From Rudaea sp. 3F27F6 (GTDB taxonomy: Bacteria > Pseudomonadota > Gammaproteobacteria > Xanthomonadales > Rhodanobacteraceae), in NCBI RefSeq assembly GCF_005503555.1, contig NZ_SCNG01000005.1, positions 310,001-374,000 of the forward strand: 64,000 bases of DNA. Reading direction: 5' to 3'. Position 1 is the stretch's first letter, and every line of letters begins with the position of its first letter. Below are positions 47,382-54,362 of the stretch, one piece after another. The translations under genes were made by a program, and so were the position numbers. The notes below the pieces were generated by a model that had not been told where the DNA came from, did not search any database, and saw nothing but the letters and a program-made list of their open reading frames with translations.

Positions 47382-48263
47382 ATGAAAATCGCCCTGGCTC
47401 AATGGCGCATCGAGGCGCCCGCTTCGTTCGCGGAATTCGCCGCACGCATTTCGGCCGAAGCGGAGTCGGCGGCCGGGCAGGGCGCGCGCATCGTCGTGCT
47501 GCCGGAATACCTCGCACTCGAACTTGCCGCGACATTGGACGCGGCAACGCGCGCCGACTTTGCGGCAACCCTGGCCGCGCTGCAGCCGATCCATGCCGAT
47601 TGGCTGCGTTTGTTTTCCGCGCTGGCGGTCAAGCACGGTATCCATCTGCTCGCCGGCACTTTTCTTCTCGCCCAGGCGAACGGCCGCTATCGCAATCGCG
47701 CCTATCTGTTCGCGCCGGACGGCGCGCACGTCTTTCAGGACAAGCTGACCCTGACCGGCTTCGAAAATGCCGCGCGCGTGATCGAGCCCGGCGACGCACT
47801 CAAAGTGTTCGATACGCCGCACGGACGCATCGGCATTGCCATCTGCTACGACAGCGAATTCCCGCTCTACGCGCGCGCGCAACGCGAAGCCGGCACGCGC
47901 TTGCTGCTCGTGCCGAGCTGCACCGACACCGAAGCCGGCGCGACGCGCGTGCGCATCGGCTGCATGGCGCGCGCGCTCGAAAACCGCATCTACGTTGCGC
48001 AGTCGGTCACCGCGGGGCAAGCGCCCGACAATCCCGCGCTCGACACCAACACCGGCCGCGCGGCGCTCTACGTCGCCAGCGACCGCGGCCTGCCGGAAGA
48101 CGGCGTCGTCGCCGCAGCGCAGCCCGGCGCAACATGGCTGATCGCGGAAGTCGATCTCGCCGCGCTGGAGGCGACCGCGGGCAATGCGCAAGTCGCCGTT
48201 CCGGCCGATTGGCTGCAGCAGTCGCGTCCGAGCGTGGCCCGAGCCACGGTCGAAGTTCTGTAG
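47382..48263 (+). CDS. Carbon-nitrogen hydrolase (nitrilase/amidase family)
   Basis: 293 residues. The catalytic triad is visible: Glu in VVLPEYLAL, Lys in FQDKLTLT and Cys in AICYDSEFP. It hydrolyses an amide or nitrile C-N bond. No signal peptide. It begins 96 nt after, and divergent from, the DUF72 gene. An omega-amidase or carbamoylase role is possible but unproven. Confidence 0.9.
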   Translation: MKIALAQWRIEAPASFAEFAARISAEAESAAGQGARIVVLPEYLALELAATLDAATRADFAATLAALQPIHADWLRLFSALAVKHGIHLLAGTFLLAQANGRYRNRAYLFAPDGAHVFQDKLTLTGFENAARVIEPGDALKVFDTPHGRIGIAICYDSEFPLYARAQREAGTRLLLVPSCTDTEAGATRVRIGCMARALENRIYVAQSVTAGQAPDNPALDTNTGRAALYVASDRGLPEDGVVAAAQPGATWLIAEVDLAALEATAGNAQVAVPADWLQQSRPSVARATVEVL

Positions 48264-48691
48264 ATTTCGTCGCAAAACGCCATGCGCGATCAGCGGCGCG
48301 CGTCACAGTGCGCGTGACGGCGTGCGCGGTTTTGCGTGCGTCTCAGCCACTGCAACAATCGTGTCATCTCATATGCGCAAAGCGGGATGACGGATCTATG
48401 CCGGCGACGTTGTTGGCCGACTCGATTCGTTGCTTCGTAAAAACCGCTTCGCGAGACATTTGATCGACTGCGGAATCATCGGATGCAGTTGTACATTTGC
48501 AATTAAAATCGACAATTCTGGATTGAAAATTTCGTTTGCATTGTAATCGATCTTCGTGCAATAGAATTCGGCAATCGCAATGAATGCGGAACTCGATGCG
48601 GCTTATGTAGTCGTGTGGTAGCGAAGAAACGAGGCCGGCATGAGCGGCGCAAGCGGCATTTCAAATCGGGACGAATAAAGGAGCTGTGCTC
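48264..48691. other. 428-bp intergenic region
   Basis: No supportable gene. A degenerate GTCATCTC...GGGATGAC stem at 48361-48391 looks like a decayed REP hairpin. The stretch 48480-48580 is AT-rich and probably carries the promoter of the protease-CHAT gene. Confidence 0.5.
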
Positions 48692-50770
48692 ATGTCGGAA
48701 ATCATCGTTTGCCGGACCATGCCGCTCACCGCCACGCAGGCGGACGCCGCCCTGCGGCGCAGTATCGAAATCAATCCCGCGAATGCGGACGGGCACCGGA
48801 TCGTCGCGCGCAGCGAGATCGGCAGACGCGGCGGCCCGAGACGCCTCACCGTTGCGATCAACCACAAATGGCCGACCAACGGTGTGCGCTTGAGCGTACA
48901 GTTTCTCGACAATCCGGAGCCGGAGTTGAGAAGGCGAATCCTCACTCACATGAATGCCTGGTCGAAGACGGCCAACGTGAGTTTCGCGGAAACGCGGGAG
49001 ACGGGTCAGGTGCGCATCGCGCGCTTGGATCAGCCAGCGGAAGTCGCCGGATATTGGTCGTATATCGGCACGCAGATACTCGGCATCGACAAGGATCAGC
49101 CGACGCTCAATCTCGAAGGCTTCACGATGAATACCTCCGAGGCCGAGTTCAAGCGCGTGGTCCGGCACGAGACCGGACACACTCTCGGCTTCGAGCACGA
49201 GCATATGCGCCGCGAGCTGGTTGCGAAGATCGACCGGCGCAAGGCGGTCGCCTACTTCGACCGCACCCAGGGATGGACGGAACAGGAGACGCTCGATCAA
49301 GTGCTGACGCCGCTGTCGAAGAAGTCGACGCTCGGCACGACCGAGGCCGATGCGCTGTCGATCATGTGCTACCAGATTCCCGGCGCGATCACCAAGAACG
49401 GCAAGGCGATTGCGGGCGGACGCGACATCACCAAGAAGGACTTTCAGTTTGCCGGTAAGTTGTATCCGCTTTCGACCAAGCGCGCCGATGCGGCATCTCA
49501 GCCGCAGGAAACATCAAAGCCGAAGGCGAGGGCCAAATCGCCGTTGCAGGATGGTGCGGCCGGCAGAGATACGTTTCATATCGTCGTGTTGACGCCGTTC
49601 GAGTACGAAGAACCGCAAGCGTCGCAGCCGGCGGCGAGCAAGGCGGAGAAAAGGCCGCAGTTCCTGCGCGTGCTCGCGAGCTACGCCGGCGCGCGCGTGG
49701 AAGCGGCGATGCGCGTGTCGTCGAAGGGCGCCGCAGCCGCAAAGGGCAAGCCCGCGGGGCCGACGCGATTCGGCTCGATCATCGGCATGCACGAGCGGAT
49801 CAAGACTTACACCAATCTCGGCAAAGGCACGCTGCCGAACAAAGAGCAGTTGGCCGCGTTCGGCAGCGATCTGTTCGAAGCCTTGTTCCGCGACAAGGTT
49901 CTGCGCTTGTACGACGAGGCGCGTTCGCGCCAGCACGGCGGCAGGCTCGACATCGTCTTCACCTCGATGGTGCCGTGGATCGCCGAGAAGCCGTGGGAGT
50001 TCGCCTACGACCGCGCGCGCGCGAGCTTTCTCGCGACGGGAGAAACGCATTTTGTGCGCAACGTGCTGACCGGCGTGCCGGCCGATTTCATTGCGCCGTC
50101 GCTCGGTCCGCTGCGCATTCTCGTCGTATCGGCGCAGCCGAGTGGCTATGGCCTGCTTTCGATCGAGCGCGAAACGCAGTTGATCGAAGACAGCTTCGCT
50201 CCGCTCAAGAAGGCAAAGTTGGCGCAAGTCGAACTTCTTGCACGCGCGACGCCGGCAAAGGTTCACGCGCAACTGTCGAGCGGCGCATTCAACGTCGTGC
50301 ATTTCATCGGCCACGGCGACTTCAACGAAGACACCCAGGAAGGTTCGTTGATATTCGAGGACGACGACGGCGGCGCCGCAGTGCTGAAACAGTCCGCGGC
50401 TTGCGAACTGTTCTGCCAGCGCGGCATCAACCTGGTTTTCTTGAATGCCTGCCGGACCGGCACGGGCGGCCGCGCGGAATTCAACAAGGGCGTGGCCCAG
50501 GCGCTGGTCGCGCACGGACTGCCGGCGCTCGTCGCCAACCAGTACAGCGTGCTCGACAGTTCGGCTGCGCATTTCGCCCAATATTTCTACTGGGCTTTGA
50601 GCCAGGGCAAGACGATCGGCCAGGCTGCCTGCGAAGCGCGGATCGCGGTGAACTGTCTGCCGCAGCGCGAGATCATCGATTGGGCCGTTCCCGTCGTGTA
50701 TGCGCGCGATCCTGCAACGGTTCTGTGCGAGCCTCCGCAAAGCCAGACGGCGGCGCCGGGCACGACTTAG
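48692..50770 (+). CDS. Metzincin-type zinc protease fused to CHAT (caspase-like) protease
   Basis: 692 residues from the ATG at 48692, eight nt after GGAG; a GTG two codons earlier is too close to it. Residues about 45-260 form a zinc protease. HETGHTLGFEH at 159-169 gives the metzincin motif HExxHxxGxxH, and SIMCY at 223-227 is the Met-turn, as in astacins. A charged, low-complexity linker (about 262-355) leads to a CHAT domain with His541 in FIGHGDF and Cys587 in LNACRTG, then ALVANQYSVLD. No signal peptide is seen, so both proteases appear cytosolic or are exported by another route. The SGNH gene follows after 48 nt. Confidence 0.88.
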   Translation: MSEIIVCRTMPLTATQADAALRRSIEINPANADGHRIVARSEIGRRGGPRRLTVAINHKWPTNGVRLSVQFLDNPEPELRRRILTHMNAWSKTANVSFAETRETGQVRIARLDQPAEVAGYWSYIGTQILGIDKDQPTLNLEGFTMNTSEAEFKRVVRHETGHTLGFEHEHMRRELVAKIDRRKAVAYFDRTQGWTEQETLDQVLTPLSKKSTLGTTEADALSIMCYQIPGAITKNGKAIAGGRDITKKDFQFAGKLYPLSTKRADAASQPQETSKPKARAKSPLQDGAAGRDTFHIVVLTPFEYEEPQASQPAASKAEKRPQFLRVLASYAGARVEAAMRVSSKGAAAAKGKPAGPTRFGSIIGMHERIKTYTNLGKGTLPNKEQLAAFGSDLFEALFRDKVLRLYDEARSRQHGGRLDIVFTSMVPWIAEKPWEFAYDRARASFLATGETHFVRNVLTGVPADFIAPSLGPLRILVVSAQPSGYGLLSIERETQLIEDSFAPLKKAKLAQVELLARATPAKVHAQLSSGAFNVVHFIGHGDFNEDTQEGSLIFEDDDGGAAVLKQSAACELFCQRGINLVFLNACRTGTGGRAEFNKGVAQALVAHGLPALVANQYSVLDSSAAHFAQYFYWALSQGKTIGQAACEARIAVNCLPQREIIDWAVPVVYARDPATVLCEPPQSQTAAPGTT

Positions 50771-50818
50771 ATTTGGCCGACATAAATCCGTACCGATTTT
50801 CCTACGAGGAGAACATCG

Positions 50819-52012
50819 ATGGCGACGAAAAGCAGAAAGGGCAAAGGGACGTCGAAGAGCAAGGGCAGCCAAACCGGTAGCCCGAAAAAAGGAGCGAAAC
50901 CGGGTTCCAAGCTCGCGCAGAGGCGCAGGTCTCCGGCCGCGATTCATGAAGAGATTGACGACAAATCTCCGGTGAGTCTCGAAGAAGCGCGCGCCTTGGT
51001 GCGCGCCGCGGCTCCGACGCGTACAGTGGCTCCGGCACGCGCAATCCGACGCGCGGCGGCACCGGTGGAGCAGCCGGTCGCTCTGGAATTGTTCGGCGAA
51101 GAGCGCGAGCGTCTGATCGATCAGCGCAACAAGGAACGCGCGCAGCAACTGCGCGATTATCAGGCGACGATGGCGATCATGAAGCAGCGCGGCGTGAAGA
51201 AAGCGCAGCCGGCGTCGGGCGGCGCGGGCCGCCGGCGCGCATTGAGCGCGGACGCCGGTTCGTTTCAGCCCCTGCAGGTGATGGCCGAAGGCGATTCGTG
51301 GTTCGAATATCCGGTGCCGTTTTTCGGCGGCGGCATCGTGCCGAGGCTGGAGAAGCGTCTCGGCGTTCCGATTCTCAATATGGCCGCGGCGGGCGATGAG
51401 GTTCGCTTTATGCTCGGCGTCGAACAGCGCAAACGCTTGCAGCAGAATCTGCAGAGCGGCTGTCCGGCCGGTGGGCCGTGGGACGTCGTACTTTTCTCGG
51501 GTGGCGGCAACGACATCGTCGACAACCCGATGGCGCTGTGGATCCGCGACTTCCAGCAGGGTGCGTCGCCAGGAAGCCTGATCAATCAGCCGCGGTTCGA
51601 CTCGGCGCTCGGCATCGTGCGCGCGGGCTACGAGGATCTGATCGCCATGCGCGACACGTTCAGTCCGACCACGCAGCTCGTCTTTCACTGCTACGACTTT
51701 GCCATACCCGACGGTCGCGGCATCTGCGGCCACGGCCCTTGGCTCAAGCCGGCGCTCGATCTGCATCGCATCACTCAGCCGGTGACGGCGGCCGCGGTGG
51801 TCAAGGAAATGCTGCTGCAGTTCAAAGGCATGCTGGATAGTCTCAGCGCGGCGCATCCGGGCAAGATCACGATTATTTCGACCCAGGGGACGCTGGATCC
51901 GAAGCCGAGTTCGTGGCACAACGAACTGCATCCGCAATCCAAGGGCTTCGACCAGTTCGCCGGGATGTTTCGCGACGCGTTGAAGACGCTCTTTCCGAAT
52001 CGGGTGATCTAG
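50819..52012 (+). CDS. SGNH/GDSL hydrolase with long basic N-terminal tail
   Basis: 397 residues. The first 45 are Lys/Ser/Gly/Arg-rich and disordered. A helical charged region (about 50-130) follows. The SGNH domain starts near residue 150: GDSWFEYP with Ser160, Gly in NMAAAGD, GGGNDIVDN with Asn231, and WHNELHP with His371. The usual aspartate three residues before the histidine is Asn368, a variant common in this subfamily. It is probably an esterase or lipase-like enzyme. It forms an apparent operon with the protease-CHAT gene. Confidence 0.82.
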   Translation: MATKSRKGKGTSKSKGSQTGSPKKGAKPGSKLAQRRRSPAAIHEEIDDKSPVSLEEARALVRAAAPTRTVAPARAIRRAAAPVEQPVALELFGEERERLIDQRNKERAQQLRDYQATMAIMKQRGVKKAQPASGGAGRRRALSADAGSFQPLQVMAEGDSWFEYPVPFFGGGIVPRLEKRLGVPILNMAAAGDEVRFMLGVEQRKRLQQNLQSGCPAGGPWDVVLFSGGGNDIVDNPMALWIRDFQQGASPGSLINQPRFDSALGIVRAGYEDLIAMRDTFSPTTQLVFHCYDFAIPDGRGICGHGPWLKPALDLHRITQPVTAAAVVKEMLLQFKGMLDSLSAAHPGKITIISTQGTLDPKPSSWHNELHPQSKGFDQFAGMFRDALKTLFPNRVI

Positions 52013-52162
52013 CGCGGCACGCTAGCGCAAAGCGATGCGCGGCCGCCGTACCGTTCGAGGTGTGCGGCGCCGTCGCCGAACTTGGATCGGACGCTCCGTT
52101 AAATTCGGTAACGATGTCGCTCGCGGAGCCTTTGCCGGGCGCCGCGAGAACGACGATCGCCG

Positions 52163-53617
52163 TCAGCCCAGTTTGAGATCGACGATAAACTGCGACGCGT
52201 CGCTTTCGAGCTTCGCGATCACGTCCTTGCGTCTGCGCGCATAGAAGTCGGTGTTCAGCGTCATGCGCTGCGCGGCGGTCCAGAAATTCACCTGCCGCGC
52301 GCCCCACTTGAAGAACAGGAAGCGCTTGCGCTCGTCCGTGCTGCGAAAGTAGAACGCGCCGAGCGCCATGCTGAGCGCGCCGTTGTCGGAACTCTGCACC
52401 GAACCGAGCTGGAAATTGCCGCTGTCGCCGGTCGAAGCATGGAAGTCGAACATGCGTATCGCGCCGTCCTCTTCGGTCAGCGAAGACAGCGCGGCGATCG
52501 ACTGCTGCAGCACCGCGAGCTGGTTCTGCGTCGCGATGGCGGTGATGATCTTGAGCGCGGCCTGGTCCATGCGGAATTCGCCTTCGCTCTGATCGAAGCT
52601 GGTGAAGGCGAACTGCTCCGTCGTCCAGCCGAGGTTTTCCAGGACTTCCACGTATTTCTGGTACCACGCGCGCGTCTGCGTGAAGCGGTCGCAGGCGCCG
52701 CTGGCCGCACGCTGGGCCAATTGAACGGAGTAGAGCACGTCTTCCTTCTGCTGCTCGCCGACGCCGTCGACGAAGGACAGCAGGCTGCCGACGTCGACCT
52801 TGGCCGCGAGCGGCGGCGCTGCAGTCCGCCCGCGCGCGATCGTCGTTTTTGCCGCGCGCGGCTTCTTGCCCGGAGCAAGTCCTCCGCGCATCAATGCGAT
52901 CGGCGCGGGGGGCAGGATGAGATCGCGGACATACGCTTCGAGTCCGACGGCGACGATGTTGTGATCGGGCATCGTCGATTTCGCTTTGCCGCCGCCTTTC
53001 GGCGCACGCGCTTGGCGCATCGGCTTCAGCAGCGCTTGATGCGGTTGCTCGATCAAATGGCCTTGCGCGTCGAATTCGGCACTGAGGACGAAGGCCGACT
53101 CTTGCGCCGTGTAGCCGGGATCCCAGTGCGTGTTTCCGGGCACGTTGCAGTGACCGTAGTGGCCGCCTTGGCTGACCCAGATTTGCGGATTGCGATTGTG
53201 GCCGCCGGGGTCCTGGCCGTTGACCGCCGGCTTGGGCGGTCCGTCGGGCCAGACTCTCGGCACGCCGTGCTCGGCTTCGATCCAGCGGCAGAGGCGCGCG
53301 ACGTTGGCGAGCGCCTGCGGATTCTTCGGCAGATGGGCGAAGCCGACGAGTTCGATCTGCACGGCGGAATCGCGATTGGTCTCGATGCCGGGCGGGTGTT
53401 CCAGGGCGCGCGCGCCCTCGGCGGTGTCGATGTGCTGGAAAATATCCGTCGCGCTCACGGTGAAATGCGGATCGGATCGGCCGCTGCGAAACGCCTCCAT
53501 TGCGCCTTCGGCCGTGCTGCCTTCGGTGGTGTGATGCACGATACGATACGGCCCGCTCACATAGGGGCCGCACGAGCCCGAGATGGGAAGCCATTTGGCA
53601 AATGGACACCGAGCCAT
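52163..53617 (-). CDS. Two-domain N-acetylmuramoyl-L-alanine amidase with unknown C-terminal domain
   Basis: 484 residues from the ATG at 53617 behind AGGGGG; a longer frame upstream is noncoding. Residues about 20-175 form an Amidase_2 domain: VHHTTEG (His28), HFTVS, QIELVG, and GHCNVPGNTHWDPG with His156 and Asp166. The N-terminus lacks a signal peptide. After an Ala/Lys-rich linker (about 235-290) a second domain (about 300-484) contains an all-helical start and a beta-rich FFKWGARQVNFWTAAQ end that I do not recognise. The gene converges on the SGNH gene with 150 nt between. Confidence 0.83.
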   Translation of the reverse strand: MARCPFAKWLPISGSCGPYVSGPYRIVHHTTEGSTAEGAMEAFRSGRSDPHFTVSATDIFQHIDTAEGARALEHPPGIETNRDSAVQIELVGFAHLPKNPQALANVARLCRWIEAEHGVPRVWPDGPPKPAVNGQDPGGHNRNPQIWVSQGGHYGHCNVPGNTHWDPGYTAQESAFVLSAEFDAQGHLIEQPHQALLKPMRQARAPKGGGKAKSTMPDHNIVAVGLEAYVRDLILPPAPIALMRGGLAPGKKPRAAKTTIARGRTAAPPLAAKVDVGSLLSFVDGVGEQQKEDVLYSVQLAQRAASGACDRFTQTRAWYQKYVEVLENLGWTTEQFAFTSFDQSEGEFRMDQAALKIITAIATQNQLAVLQQSIAALSSLTEEDGAIRMFDFHASTGDSGNFQLGSVQSSDNGALSMALGAFYFRSTDERKRFLFFKWGARQVNFWTAAQRMTLNTDFYARRRKDVIAKLESDASQFIVDLKLG

Positions 53618-53706
53618 AAATCCCCCTTGGATTTTACCAAAATCGCGGTTTGCGTCGGATAAAAATCGGGGTGCAGCGTAATACGCCGAACGGCGGCGTA
53701 CAACGG

Positions 53707-53724
53707 CCCATTTTTGAAAATGGG
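53707..53724. promoter_or_regulatory. Palindrome CCCATTTTTGAAAATGGG
   Basis: A perfect 18-bp inverted repeat with a partial third arm (TTCAAAATGG, 53733-53742) just after it. It lies 90 nt upstream of the amidase start in a gap between two minus-strand genes, so it may be an operator for the amidase or a terminator for neither. No T-run follows on the minus strand beyond the arm. Confidence 0.4.
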
Positions 53725-53810
53725 CGCGGTTATTCAAAATGGTCGGTGATTATTTTGCGTCGCGCGAATGTGCTGCGACGCGTGGGCGGACGGGATCGTC
53801 GGTTCGACGG

Positions 53811-54362
53811 TCAGATCGGCAGCAAGGTGGTGACCCACAGCGAGGTGCAGGCCAGGCCGCAGCCGATCAGCGTGGCGGCGAGCACGTCGCTCGGGTAATG
53901 CAAGCCGAGCACGACGCGCGAAGCTGCGACGAGCAGTGCGAATGGAATCAGCAGCGGTGCCAGCCACGGGAAGTACGCCAACGCGACGATCGTGAAGGTG
54001 ACCGCATGCAGGGTGTGTCCCGAGGGAAAGCTGAACTCGTCGAGCGGCAGCACGAGCGGCACGATGTCCTGATGCGTGCGGAACGGGCGCGGGCGCCGCG
54101 TCCAGCGTTTGAGGCCGCGGTACATCGAGGCCGCGACGATGCCGGTCAGTGCCATCTGCAGCGCGACGTGGACGCCCTTGATGCCACCGAAGATCGCGAT
54201 CGCGAGCATCAGCACGTACCAGAAGACGCCGTCGCCGAGGCGGCTGATCACACCGAAGAAGCGCGCGATCGCGCGGCGTGCACCCCAGTGATTGGCGCGG
54301 CGGCACAGACCGACTTCGCGGCTGCGCAGTTCGAGGTTTTGCCAGAGTTGCGTCGCGGTCAT
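53811..54362 (-). CDS. PAP2-family phosphatase
   Basis: 183 residues from the ATG at 54362, which overlaps the stop of the glycosyltransferase (ATGA). Five or six hydrophobic segments. The phosphatase signature is complete: LKRWTRRPRPF, SFPSGHT and SRVVLGLHYPSD. It dephosphorylates lipid phosphates such as phosphatidate or undecaprenyl diphosphate at the outer face of the inner membrane. Coupling to a GT4 gene suggests glycolipid or isoprenoid-lipid metabolism. Confidence 0.9.
   Translation of the reverse strand: MTATQLWQNLELRSREVGLCRRANHWGARRAIARFFGVISRLGDGVFWYVLMLAIAIFGGIKGVHVALQMALTGIVAASMYRGLKRWTRRPRPFRTHQDIVPLVLPLDEFSFPSGHTLHAVTFTIVALAYFPWLAPLLIPFALLVAASRVVLGLHYPSDVLAATLIGCGLACTSLWVTTLLPI

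What the first reader, a model, noticed from the sequence alone, without database searches (positions are those of the whole stretch)
48692..50770. Single polypeptide with a metzincin zinc protease and a CHAT caspase-like protease
HETGHTLGFEH (159-169) plus Met-turn SIMCY (223-227) define an intact metzincin site. His541 and Cys587 define an intact CHAT dyad. CHAT domains act as regulated proteases in bacterial defence and cell-death systems. A fusion to a metzincin, without signal peptide, is unusual, and I know of no characterised example. One protease may activate or process the other.
Basis: partly seen in the sequence, partly recalled or inferred. Interest (0 to 1): 0.8.

Follow-up and report, generated by a model that had tools for sequence, protein, structure and literature searches.

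The report
Two-protease fusion with SGNH partner
A bacterial protein joins a zinc protease, built like a locked precursor, to a caspase-like protease, and it sits in a small inserted gene cassette with a lipase-like partner; its function is untested, but the layout suggests one protease may unlock the other.

Summary
ORF 48692-50770 (692 aa) carries an astacin-type metzincin and a CHAT caspase-like domain, both with intact catalytic motifs, without a signal peptide. It is not a one-off: all 120 listed relatives carry both, and 115 of 120 continue into a further domain that this protein lacks. In a model made from 18 loci that domain folds like an archaemetzincin without its HExxH, a pseudo-protease. 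[quoted passage not shown] lost in two distant stand-alone ones). An SGNH hydrolase gene adjoins the fusion in 9 of 13 assessable loci. Fusion, SGNH and an amidase gene form a 5.6-kb block missing from two same-genus genomes. Best reading: a horizontally moved hydrolase module in which CHAT gates a cysteine-switch metzincin. Latency anatomy is well supported; activation by CHAT is inferred; a defence role is untested. Stand-alone metzincins with the same Arg site speak against an obligatory CHAT role. My searches found no paper describing the fusion.

The parts
48254..53831 (.). Inserted cassette (fusion gene, SGNH gene, amidase gene) between a carbon-nitrogen hydrolase gene and a PAP2 gene; ends approximate
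   Evidence: BLASTN flanks in two same-genus genomes: about 0.8 kb (G011) and about 0.2 kb (G008) in place of 5.6 kb
48679..48683 (+). AGGAG, likely ribosome binding site
   Evidence: read from sequence
48692..50770 (+). Metzincin-CHAT fusion gene, 692 aa
48692..48796 (+). Putative prosegment, residues 1-35 (block means of pLDDT 74-89 for residues 1-30, 55 for 31-40)
   Evidence: structural alignment with pro-myroilysin 5czw/5gwd begins at residue 1 or 2
48710..48712 (+). Cys7, candidate cysteine-switch residue
   Evidence: 57 of 58 rows Cys, 1 gap; 117 of 121 fused (4 gaps) and 114 of 120 stand-alone (5 gaps, 1 Phe)
48797..48844 (+). Disordered loop (residues 36-51), contains GRRGGPRR (44-51)
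   Evidence: pLDDT under 50
48842..48847 (+). Arg51-Leu52, predicted maturation site
   Evidence: aligned with R39-G40 of pro-myroilysin; by count the 5zjk (mature) chain starts at that Gly. Arg51: 241 of 241 rows, 56 of 58 rows of the wider alignment
48845..49477 (+). Astacin-type metzincin catalytic domain (residues 52-262)
49166..49201 (+). Zinc motif HETGHTLGFEHE (159-170) with Glu170 in the place of the family-specific Glu
   Evidence: 58 of 58 rows
49358..49372 (+). Met-turn SIMCY (223-227)
   Evidence: M225 and Y227 58 of 58
49553..50740 (+). CHAT region (residues 288-683 by fold; Pfam CHAT 391-668)
50312..50314 (+). His541, catalytic dyad
50450..50452 (+). Cys587, catalytic dyad
50819..52012 (+). 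SGNH/GDSL-like hydrolase gene, 397 aa, Lys/Arg-rich N-terminal part; partner gene 48 bp downstream. Pfam Lipase_GDSL_2 22.1 bits, below its cut-off of 32.9
52163..53737 (-). Amidase_2 protein (start codon uncertain) with a C-terminal half that matches no Pfam family; a 63% identical homologue lies near the fusion in L007

Best explanation
The gene encodes a probably cytosolic two-protease zymogen carried in a horizontally acquired hydrolase cassette. The metzincin is held latent by an N-terminal prosegment whose Cys7 caps the catalytic zinc (cysteine switch, as in pro-myroilysin). Cleavage after Arg51 in the disordered GRRGGPRR loop would free the active site and let the new N-terminus pair with Glu170. 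The fused CHAT domain, a separase-like clan CD protease of likely Arg preference, is the most plausible activator, in cis or between copies. Once a stimulus switches CHAT on, the pair would process the co-encoded SGNH hydrolase (through its basic tail) and/or cell proteins, damaging the cell or an intruder. In most listed relatives an archaemetzincin-like domain without HExxH follows CHAT, perhaps as regulator or docking site; here it is missing. Shown: domains, intact sites, zymogen-like anatomy, partner gene, insertion. Inferred: latency, cleavage at R51, CHAT as activator, SGNH as target, defence or self-harm role.
For: Closest solved relative is myroilysin. [quoted passage not shown] a structure paper says its mature N-terminal Gly binds the family-specific Glu (PMC9629494, passages). 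Cys7 is conserved. Model: ordered N-terminal segment, disordered 36-51, ordered catalytic domain. R51/L52 aligns with the R/G boundary where mature myroilysin starts; R51 in 241 of 241 close rows. The CHAT model matches separase and gingipains; separases prefer Arg, gingipains Arg or Lys (PMC4357240, passages). SGNH gene adjacent in 9 of 13 assessable loci, one copy in 8 of 10 genomes searched and near the metzincin gene in 7 of those 8. Cassette insertion.
Against: Stand-alone metzincins (the 120 listed of 4265 hits) keep Cys7 and Arg51 without CHAT in the same protein, so another protease or autolysis may mature them. R50 is Arg in 121 of 121 fused but 80 of 120 stand-alone rows; a tree-based pair test found no significant link to CHAT. 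The pairwise alignment has only modest posterior values around the site, and two of 58 rows lack Arg51. No coordinates were available to check that Cys7 touches zinc. Cys7 lies 44 residues before Arg51, farther than I recall for myroilysin. No sensor domain was found. 4 of 13 loci lack the SGNH gene. Of 10 neighbouring proteins from relatives 9 had no PADLOC hit.
Confidence: 0.42

Rival explanations
1. The metzincin matures by itself or by another cell protease; CHAT and metzincin are two separate effectors that share one chain only for co-delivery, and neither acts on the other.
For: Stand-alone metzincins keep Cys7 and Arg51. Other CHAT proteins of this kind carry DUF7379, a different hydrolase-looking domain, in place of the metzincin (Pfam for L015 and L020; L059, L063, L064 by similarity). 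Fused and stand-alone forms interchange on the tree: 13 changes, at least 8 forced by well-supported branches.
Against: The loop keeps both Arg50 and Arg51 in 121 of 121 fused rows. In L012, where the two parts are separate ORFs, they stay side by side with SGNH, although a single stop codon, possibly a sequencing error, explains that split.
Confidence: 0.28
2. A hydrolase cargo set used outside the cell (predation, scavenging or competitor killing), exported by a non-classical route; the basic tails of the partners are export or packaging signals.
For: Across different loci the neighbours include SGNH, amidase, patatin, metallo-beta-lactamase-fold, gluzincin-like, clostripain and caspase genes, a digestive-looking set. 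SGNH N-terminal parts are rich in Lys/Arg. Astacins in general are described as extracellular (PMC9848320, passages).
Against: No evident signal peptide. Secretion genes were not searched for. Separase and Csx29, the closest CHAT folds, act inside cells (recalled).
Confidence: 0.15
3. Phage-triggered abortive defence module in the strict sense, with CHAT directly sensing infection.
For: CHAT proteases act in CRISPR-linked defence (Craspase: PMC10028731, passages; CalpL: PMC11417357, search listing; fold matches). Patchy spread across phyla and a cassette insertion.
Against: No recognised sensor. 9 of 10 chosen neighbours in relatives have no PADLOC hit. PADLOC match of the fusion itself covers only CHAT.
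Confidence: 0.12
4. In this genome the gene is a decaying remnant, since it lacks the C-terminal domain present in most listed relatives.
For: 115 of 120 listed relatives have at least 180 aa after CHAT; this protein has 22.
Against: All catalytic residues are intact, and a separate database entry, P0001, 98% identical, has the same 692-aa length.
Confidence: 0.03

Closest known systems
Myroilysin (M12A astacin, PDB 5gwd/5czw pro-form, 5zjk mature)
   Same: Catalytic fold, HExxHxxGxxHE motif, Met-turn, prosegment in place of a switch, Arg at the mature boundary
   Different: Secreted elastase of one catalytic domain; here no evident signal peptide, fused to CHAT, and a longer stretch between Cys and site (the myroilysin distance is recalled)
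Craspase TPR-CHAT (Csx29)
   Same: Best fold match of the CHAT half; regulated caspase-like protease with an encoded partner substrate
   Different: No TPR match; no Cas gene among the nine neighbouring proteins scanned (CRISPR arrays not searched); neighbour here is an SGNH hydrolase
SAVED-CHAT (CHAT protein of 8tl0)
   Same: Only sequence match of the CHAT half in the PDB; catalytic His and Cys align
   Different: No SAVED match in Pfam
Separase and gingipain R/K
   Same: Caspase-like fold, Arg/Lys-type clan CD proteases
   Different: Low identity (8-15%), different organisation and role
Archaemetzincin (M54)
   Different: HExxH missing in 115 of 115 examined tails; domain absent from the window protein

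Membership tests
Astacin family M12A (metzincins) | HExxHxxGxxHE zinc motif with family-specific Glu | tested here: met
   58 of 58 rows
Astacin family M12A (metzincins) | Met-turn SxMxY with the Tyr | tested here: met
   SIMCY 223-227; M and Y 58 of 58
Astacin family M12A (metzincins) | Astacin catalytic fold | tested here: met
Cysteine-switch zymogen (myroilysin type) | Prosegment Cys upstream of the maturation site | tested here: met
   Cys7 in 57 of 58 rows, 1 gap
Cysteine-switch zymogen (myroilysin type) | Cys thiol ligates the catalytic zinc and keeps the enzyme latent | not testable with these tools
   no coordinates and no biochemistry
Cysteine-switch zymogen (myroilysin type) | Maturation cleavage at the domain boundary | tested here: inconclusive
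   R51/L52 aligns with the mature N-terminus of myroilysin; cleavage itself not observed
CHAT proteases (clan CD) | Pfam CHAT profile and His/Cys dyad | tested here: met
   105.6 bits; H541 and C587 in 54 of 58 rows, 4 gaps
CHAT proteases (clan CD) | Caspase-like fold | tested here: met
Craspase / type III-E CRISPR | TPR region in the CHAT protein | tested here: not met
   no TPR family at E <= 0.1; a metzincin occupies the N-terminal part
Craspase / type III-E CRISPR | Cas7-11 (gRAMP) partner | tested here: inconclusive
   none among nine neighbouring proteins scanned with Pfam; the rest of the genome was not scanned
SAVED-CHAT defence | SAVED sensor domain | tested here: not met
   no SAVED match at E <= 0.1; the PADLOC match covers residues 463-687 only
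Anti-phage defence system | Protection against phage | not testable with these tools
   needs experiment
Archaemetzincin M54 (C-terminal domain of relatives) | Archaemetzincin fold | tested here: met
Archaemetzincin M54 (C-terminal domain of relatives) | HExxH zinc site | tested here: not met
   0 of 115

The most novel reading that the evidence does not exclude
A bacterial protease cascade in one chain: a caspase-like CHAT protease, watched over in most relatives by a dead archaemetzincin, cuts after Arg51 and opens a cytosolic cysteine-switch metzincin, which with the SGNH hydrolase partner carries out programmed self-destruction. This would link caspase-type and metzincin-type control in prokaryotes.
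Probability: 0.22. Interest if true: 0.88.

Novelty: new variant of a known kind. Interest (0 to 1): 0.64.

Why it matters
A 2023 review describes astacins outside animals and their kin as scattered, in bacteria mainly in pathogens or colonizers of animals, and probably acquired from animals (PMC9848320, passages). Here is a large zymogen-like astacin group (4265 stand-alone hits, besides the fusions) with members in several bacterial phyla, without an evident signal peptide in the window protein, tied to caspase-like proteases and lipase-like partners. If CHAT opens the metzincin, it is a directly testable two-step proteolytic switch. The pseudo-archaemetzincin adds a case of a dead protease kept beside two live ones.

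Tried and rejected
One-off fusion: rejected, 120 of 120 listed relatives carry both motifs. That search takes only proteins of 0.55 to 1.75 times the query length and lists 120 of 681, so it favours fusions; the other 561 were not seen. Assembly artefact of the short form: unlikely, P0001 has the same length. CHAT-linked dibasic site: R50 is Arg in all 121 fused rows but, on the tree, 8 independent pairs gave no significant link, so it is not used as support. Whole fusion on plasmids or phages: 0 of 8 plasmid records and 0 of 1 phage record covered 80% of the query; the viral-contig scan gave one distant metzincin. Repeats bracketing the cassette: none found. Sigma-70-like promoter sites in 48200-53900: 0 found. 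Presence in whole genomes: at E <= 1e-40, 6 of 297 (phylum of L008), 3 of 288 (phylum of L011), 1 of 347 (order of L018) and 1 of 246 (order of L012); each count includes the centre genome, and only the centre genomes match both halves (in G456 across a stop codon), the other 7 matching the metzincin or the CHAT part alone. In the window's phylum only the own genome among 398 at E <= 1e-60. In one search, 14 of 60 matched at E <= 1e-3, but only the own genome and G058 over the full length. Rows dropped: in the SGNH adjacency count I left out L007, L010 and L023 (downstream side cut by the contig end), and loci without a recognised metzincin-CHAT fusion (L015, L016, L017, L019-L022; of these L017 and L022 do have an SGNH gene). 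I counted L012 (split by a stop codon) and L014 (5' end cut) as fusions. One search covered 10 of 11 genomes at hand (G459 omitted). Some 'stand-alone' metzincins may be truncated fusions. G002 was not informative for the empty site, as its flanks lie on two contigs. The zinc-Cys distance could not be checked. What I say about the Cys position in myroilysin is recalled.

Full report

Zymogen anatomy. [quoted passage not shown] A structure paper states that its mature N-terminal Gly binds the family-specific Glu (PMC9629494, passages). Here Cys7 is present in 57 of 58 aligned rows (one gap) and Glu170 in 58 of 58. The model has an ordered N-terminal segment (block means 74-89 for residues 1-30), a disordered 36-51 and an ordered catalytic domain. 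The pairwise alignment puts R51/L52 on R39/G40 of pro-myroilysin, with modest posterior values there; by count the mature chain 5zjk starts at that Gly. Structural alignment also starts the mature chain at model residue 52. R51 is Arg in 121 of 121 fused and 120 of 120 stand-alone rows, and in 56 of 58 rows of the wider alignment; the two exceptions fit the stand-alone metzincins L021 and L022. I take this as good evidence for a latent metzincin, though the zinc-Cys contact was not seen.

Who cuts. The CHAT fold lies near separase and gingipains; separases prefer Arg, gingipains Arg or Lys (PMC4357240, passages). CHAT is therefore a candidate activator. Against this, stand-alone metzincins keep the same site, and the tree-based test of the second Arg was not significant. 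In one search the fused state needs 13 changes, at least 8 forced by supported branches, so fusion and separation recur (some stand-alone entries may be truncated).

Partner genes. An SGNH hydrolase lies next to the fusion in 9 of 13 loci where the neighbourhood is not cut (window, L002, L005, L008, L009, L011, L012, L014, L018; not L003, L004, L006, L013). In 7 of the 9 it follows within 48 bp or overlaps, in L008 after 219 bp, and in L011 it lies upstream; L009/L018 are both Bradyrhizobium with shared neighbours and L003/L004 are close relatives. In 8 of 10 genomes searched it occurs exactly once at E <= 1e-5; in 7 of these it is near the metzincin gene, and in the eighth both sit at contig ends. 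Other loci show CHAT fused to DUF7379 (Pfam for L015 and L020; L059, L063, L064 by similarity), with clostripain (L020) or SGNH and caspase genes (L064) beside it, and metzincins beside metallo-beta-lactamase-fold and HExxH-bearing genes (L021, L060). In the window an amidase gene follows; its 63% homologue lies near the fusion in L007. It was not found in the 59 other relatives searched.

Mobility. None of 15 same-genus genomes has the fusion. Between the flanking genes, two of them hold about 0.8 kb and 0.2 kb where the window holds 5.6 kb. The cassette genes have G+C 0.63 against 0.65-0.69 for the flanking genes, and the 428 bases before the fusion gene 0.52. No bracketing repeats were found.

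Mechanism. I propose that the metzincin is held by Cys7, that cleavage at R51 opens it, that CHAT is the likeliest cutter when stimulated, and that the SGNH partner is processed or acts with it. Only the anatomy, the partner gene and the insertion are shown. The physiological role (self-destruction, defence or external use) is open. Of 10 chosen neighbouring proteins in relatives 9 had no PADLOC hit; the tenth matched several ATPase-type models.

Verdict. Real, conserved and, as far as my searches go, uncharacterised; a new variant of the known kind of CHAT-protease effector modules, with a testable switch.

Noticed in passing
L015, L020, L059, L063, L064: CHAT fused to DUF7379 or a similar domain (HGTFS and THSRGG or AHSRGG motifs, serine-hydrolase look) in place of the metzincin; L064 has a caspase gene and L020 a clostripain gene next door.
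   Followed up: partly
L021 and L060: Conserved trio: an HExxH-bearing protein of 584 aa (weak Peptidase_M4 match), a metallo-beta-lactamase-fold protein and a stand-alone metzincin.
   Followed up: partly
window 50819-52012 and related SGNH genes: Block V reads NELHP instead of DxxHP in 10 of 13 SGNH sequences checked, DELHP in one, not present in two cut ones; the catalytic acid may be changed.
   Followed up: no
window 52163-53000: C-terminal half of the amidase protein matches no Pfam family.
   Followed up: no
L012 7950-10592: Metzincin and CHAT are separate ORFs split by one in-frame TAA; fission or sequencing error.
   Followed up: partly
L022 7965-12752: Hymenobacter MAG cluster with three metzincin genes, one with a weak zinc-ribbon match, followed by an SGNH gene.
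   Followed up: no
L081 (Ruegeria pomeroyi megaplasmid): Related CHAT protein followed by an AAA ATPase and a hypothetical gene.
   Followed up: no
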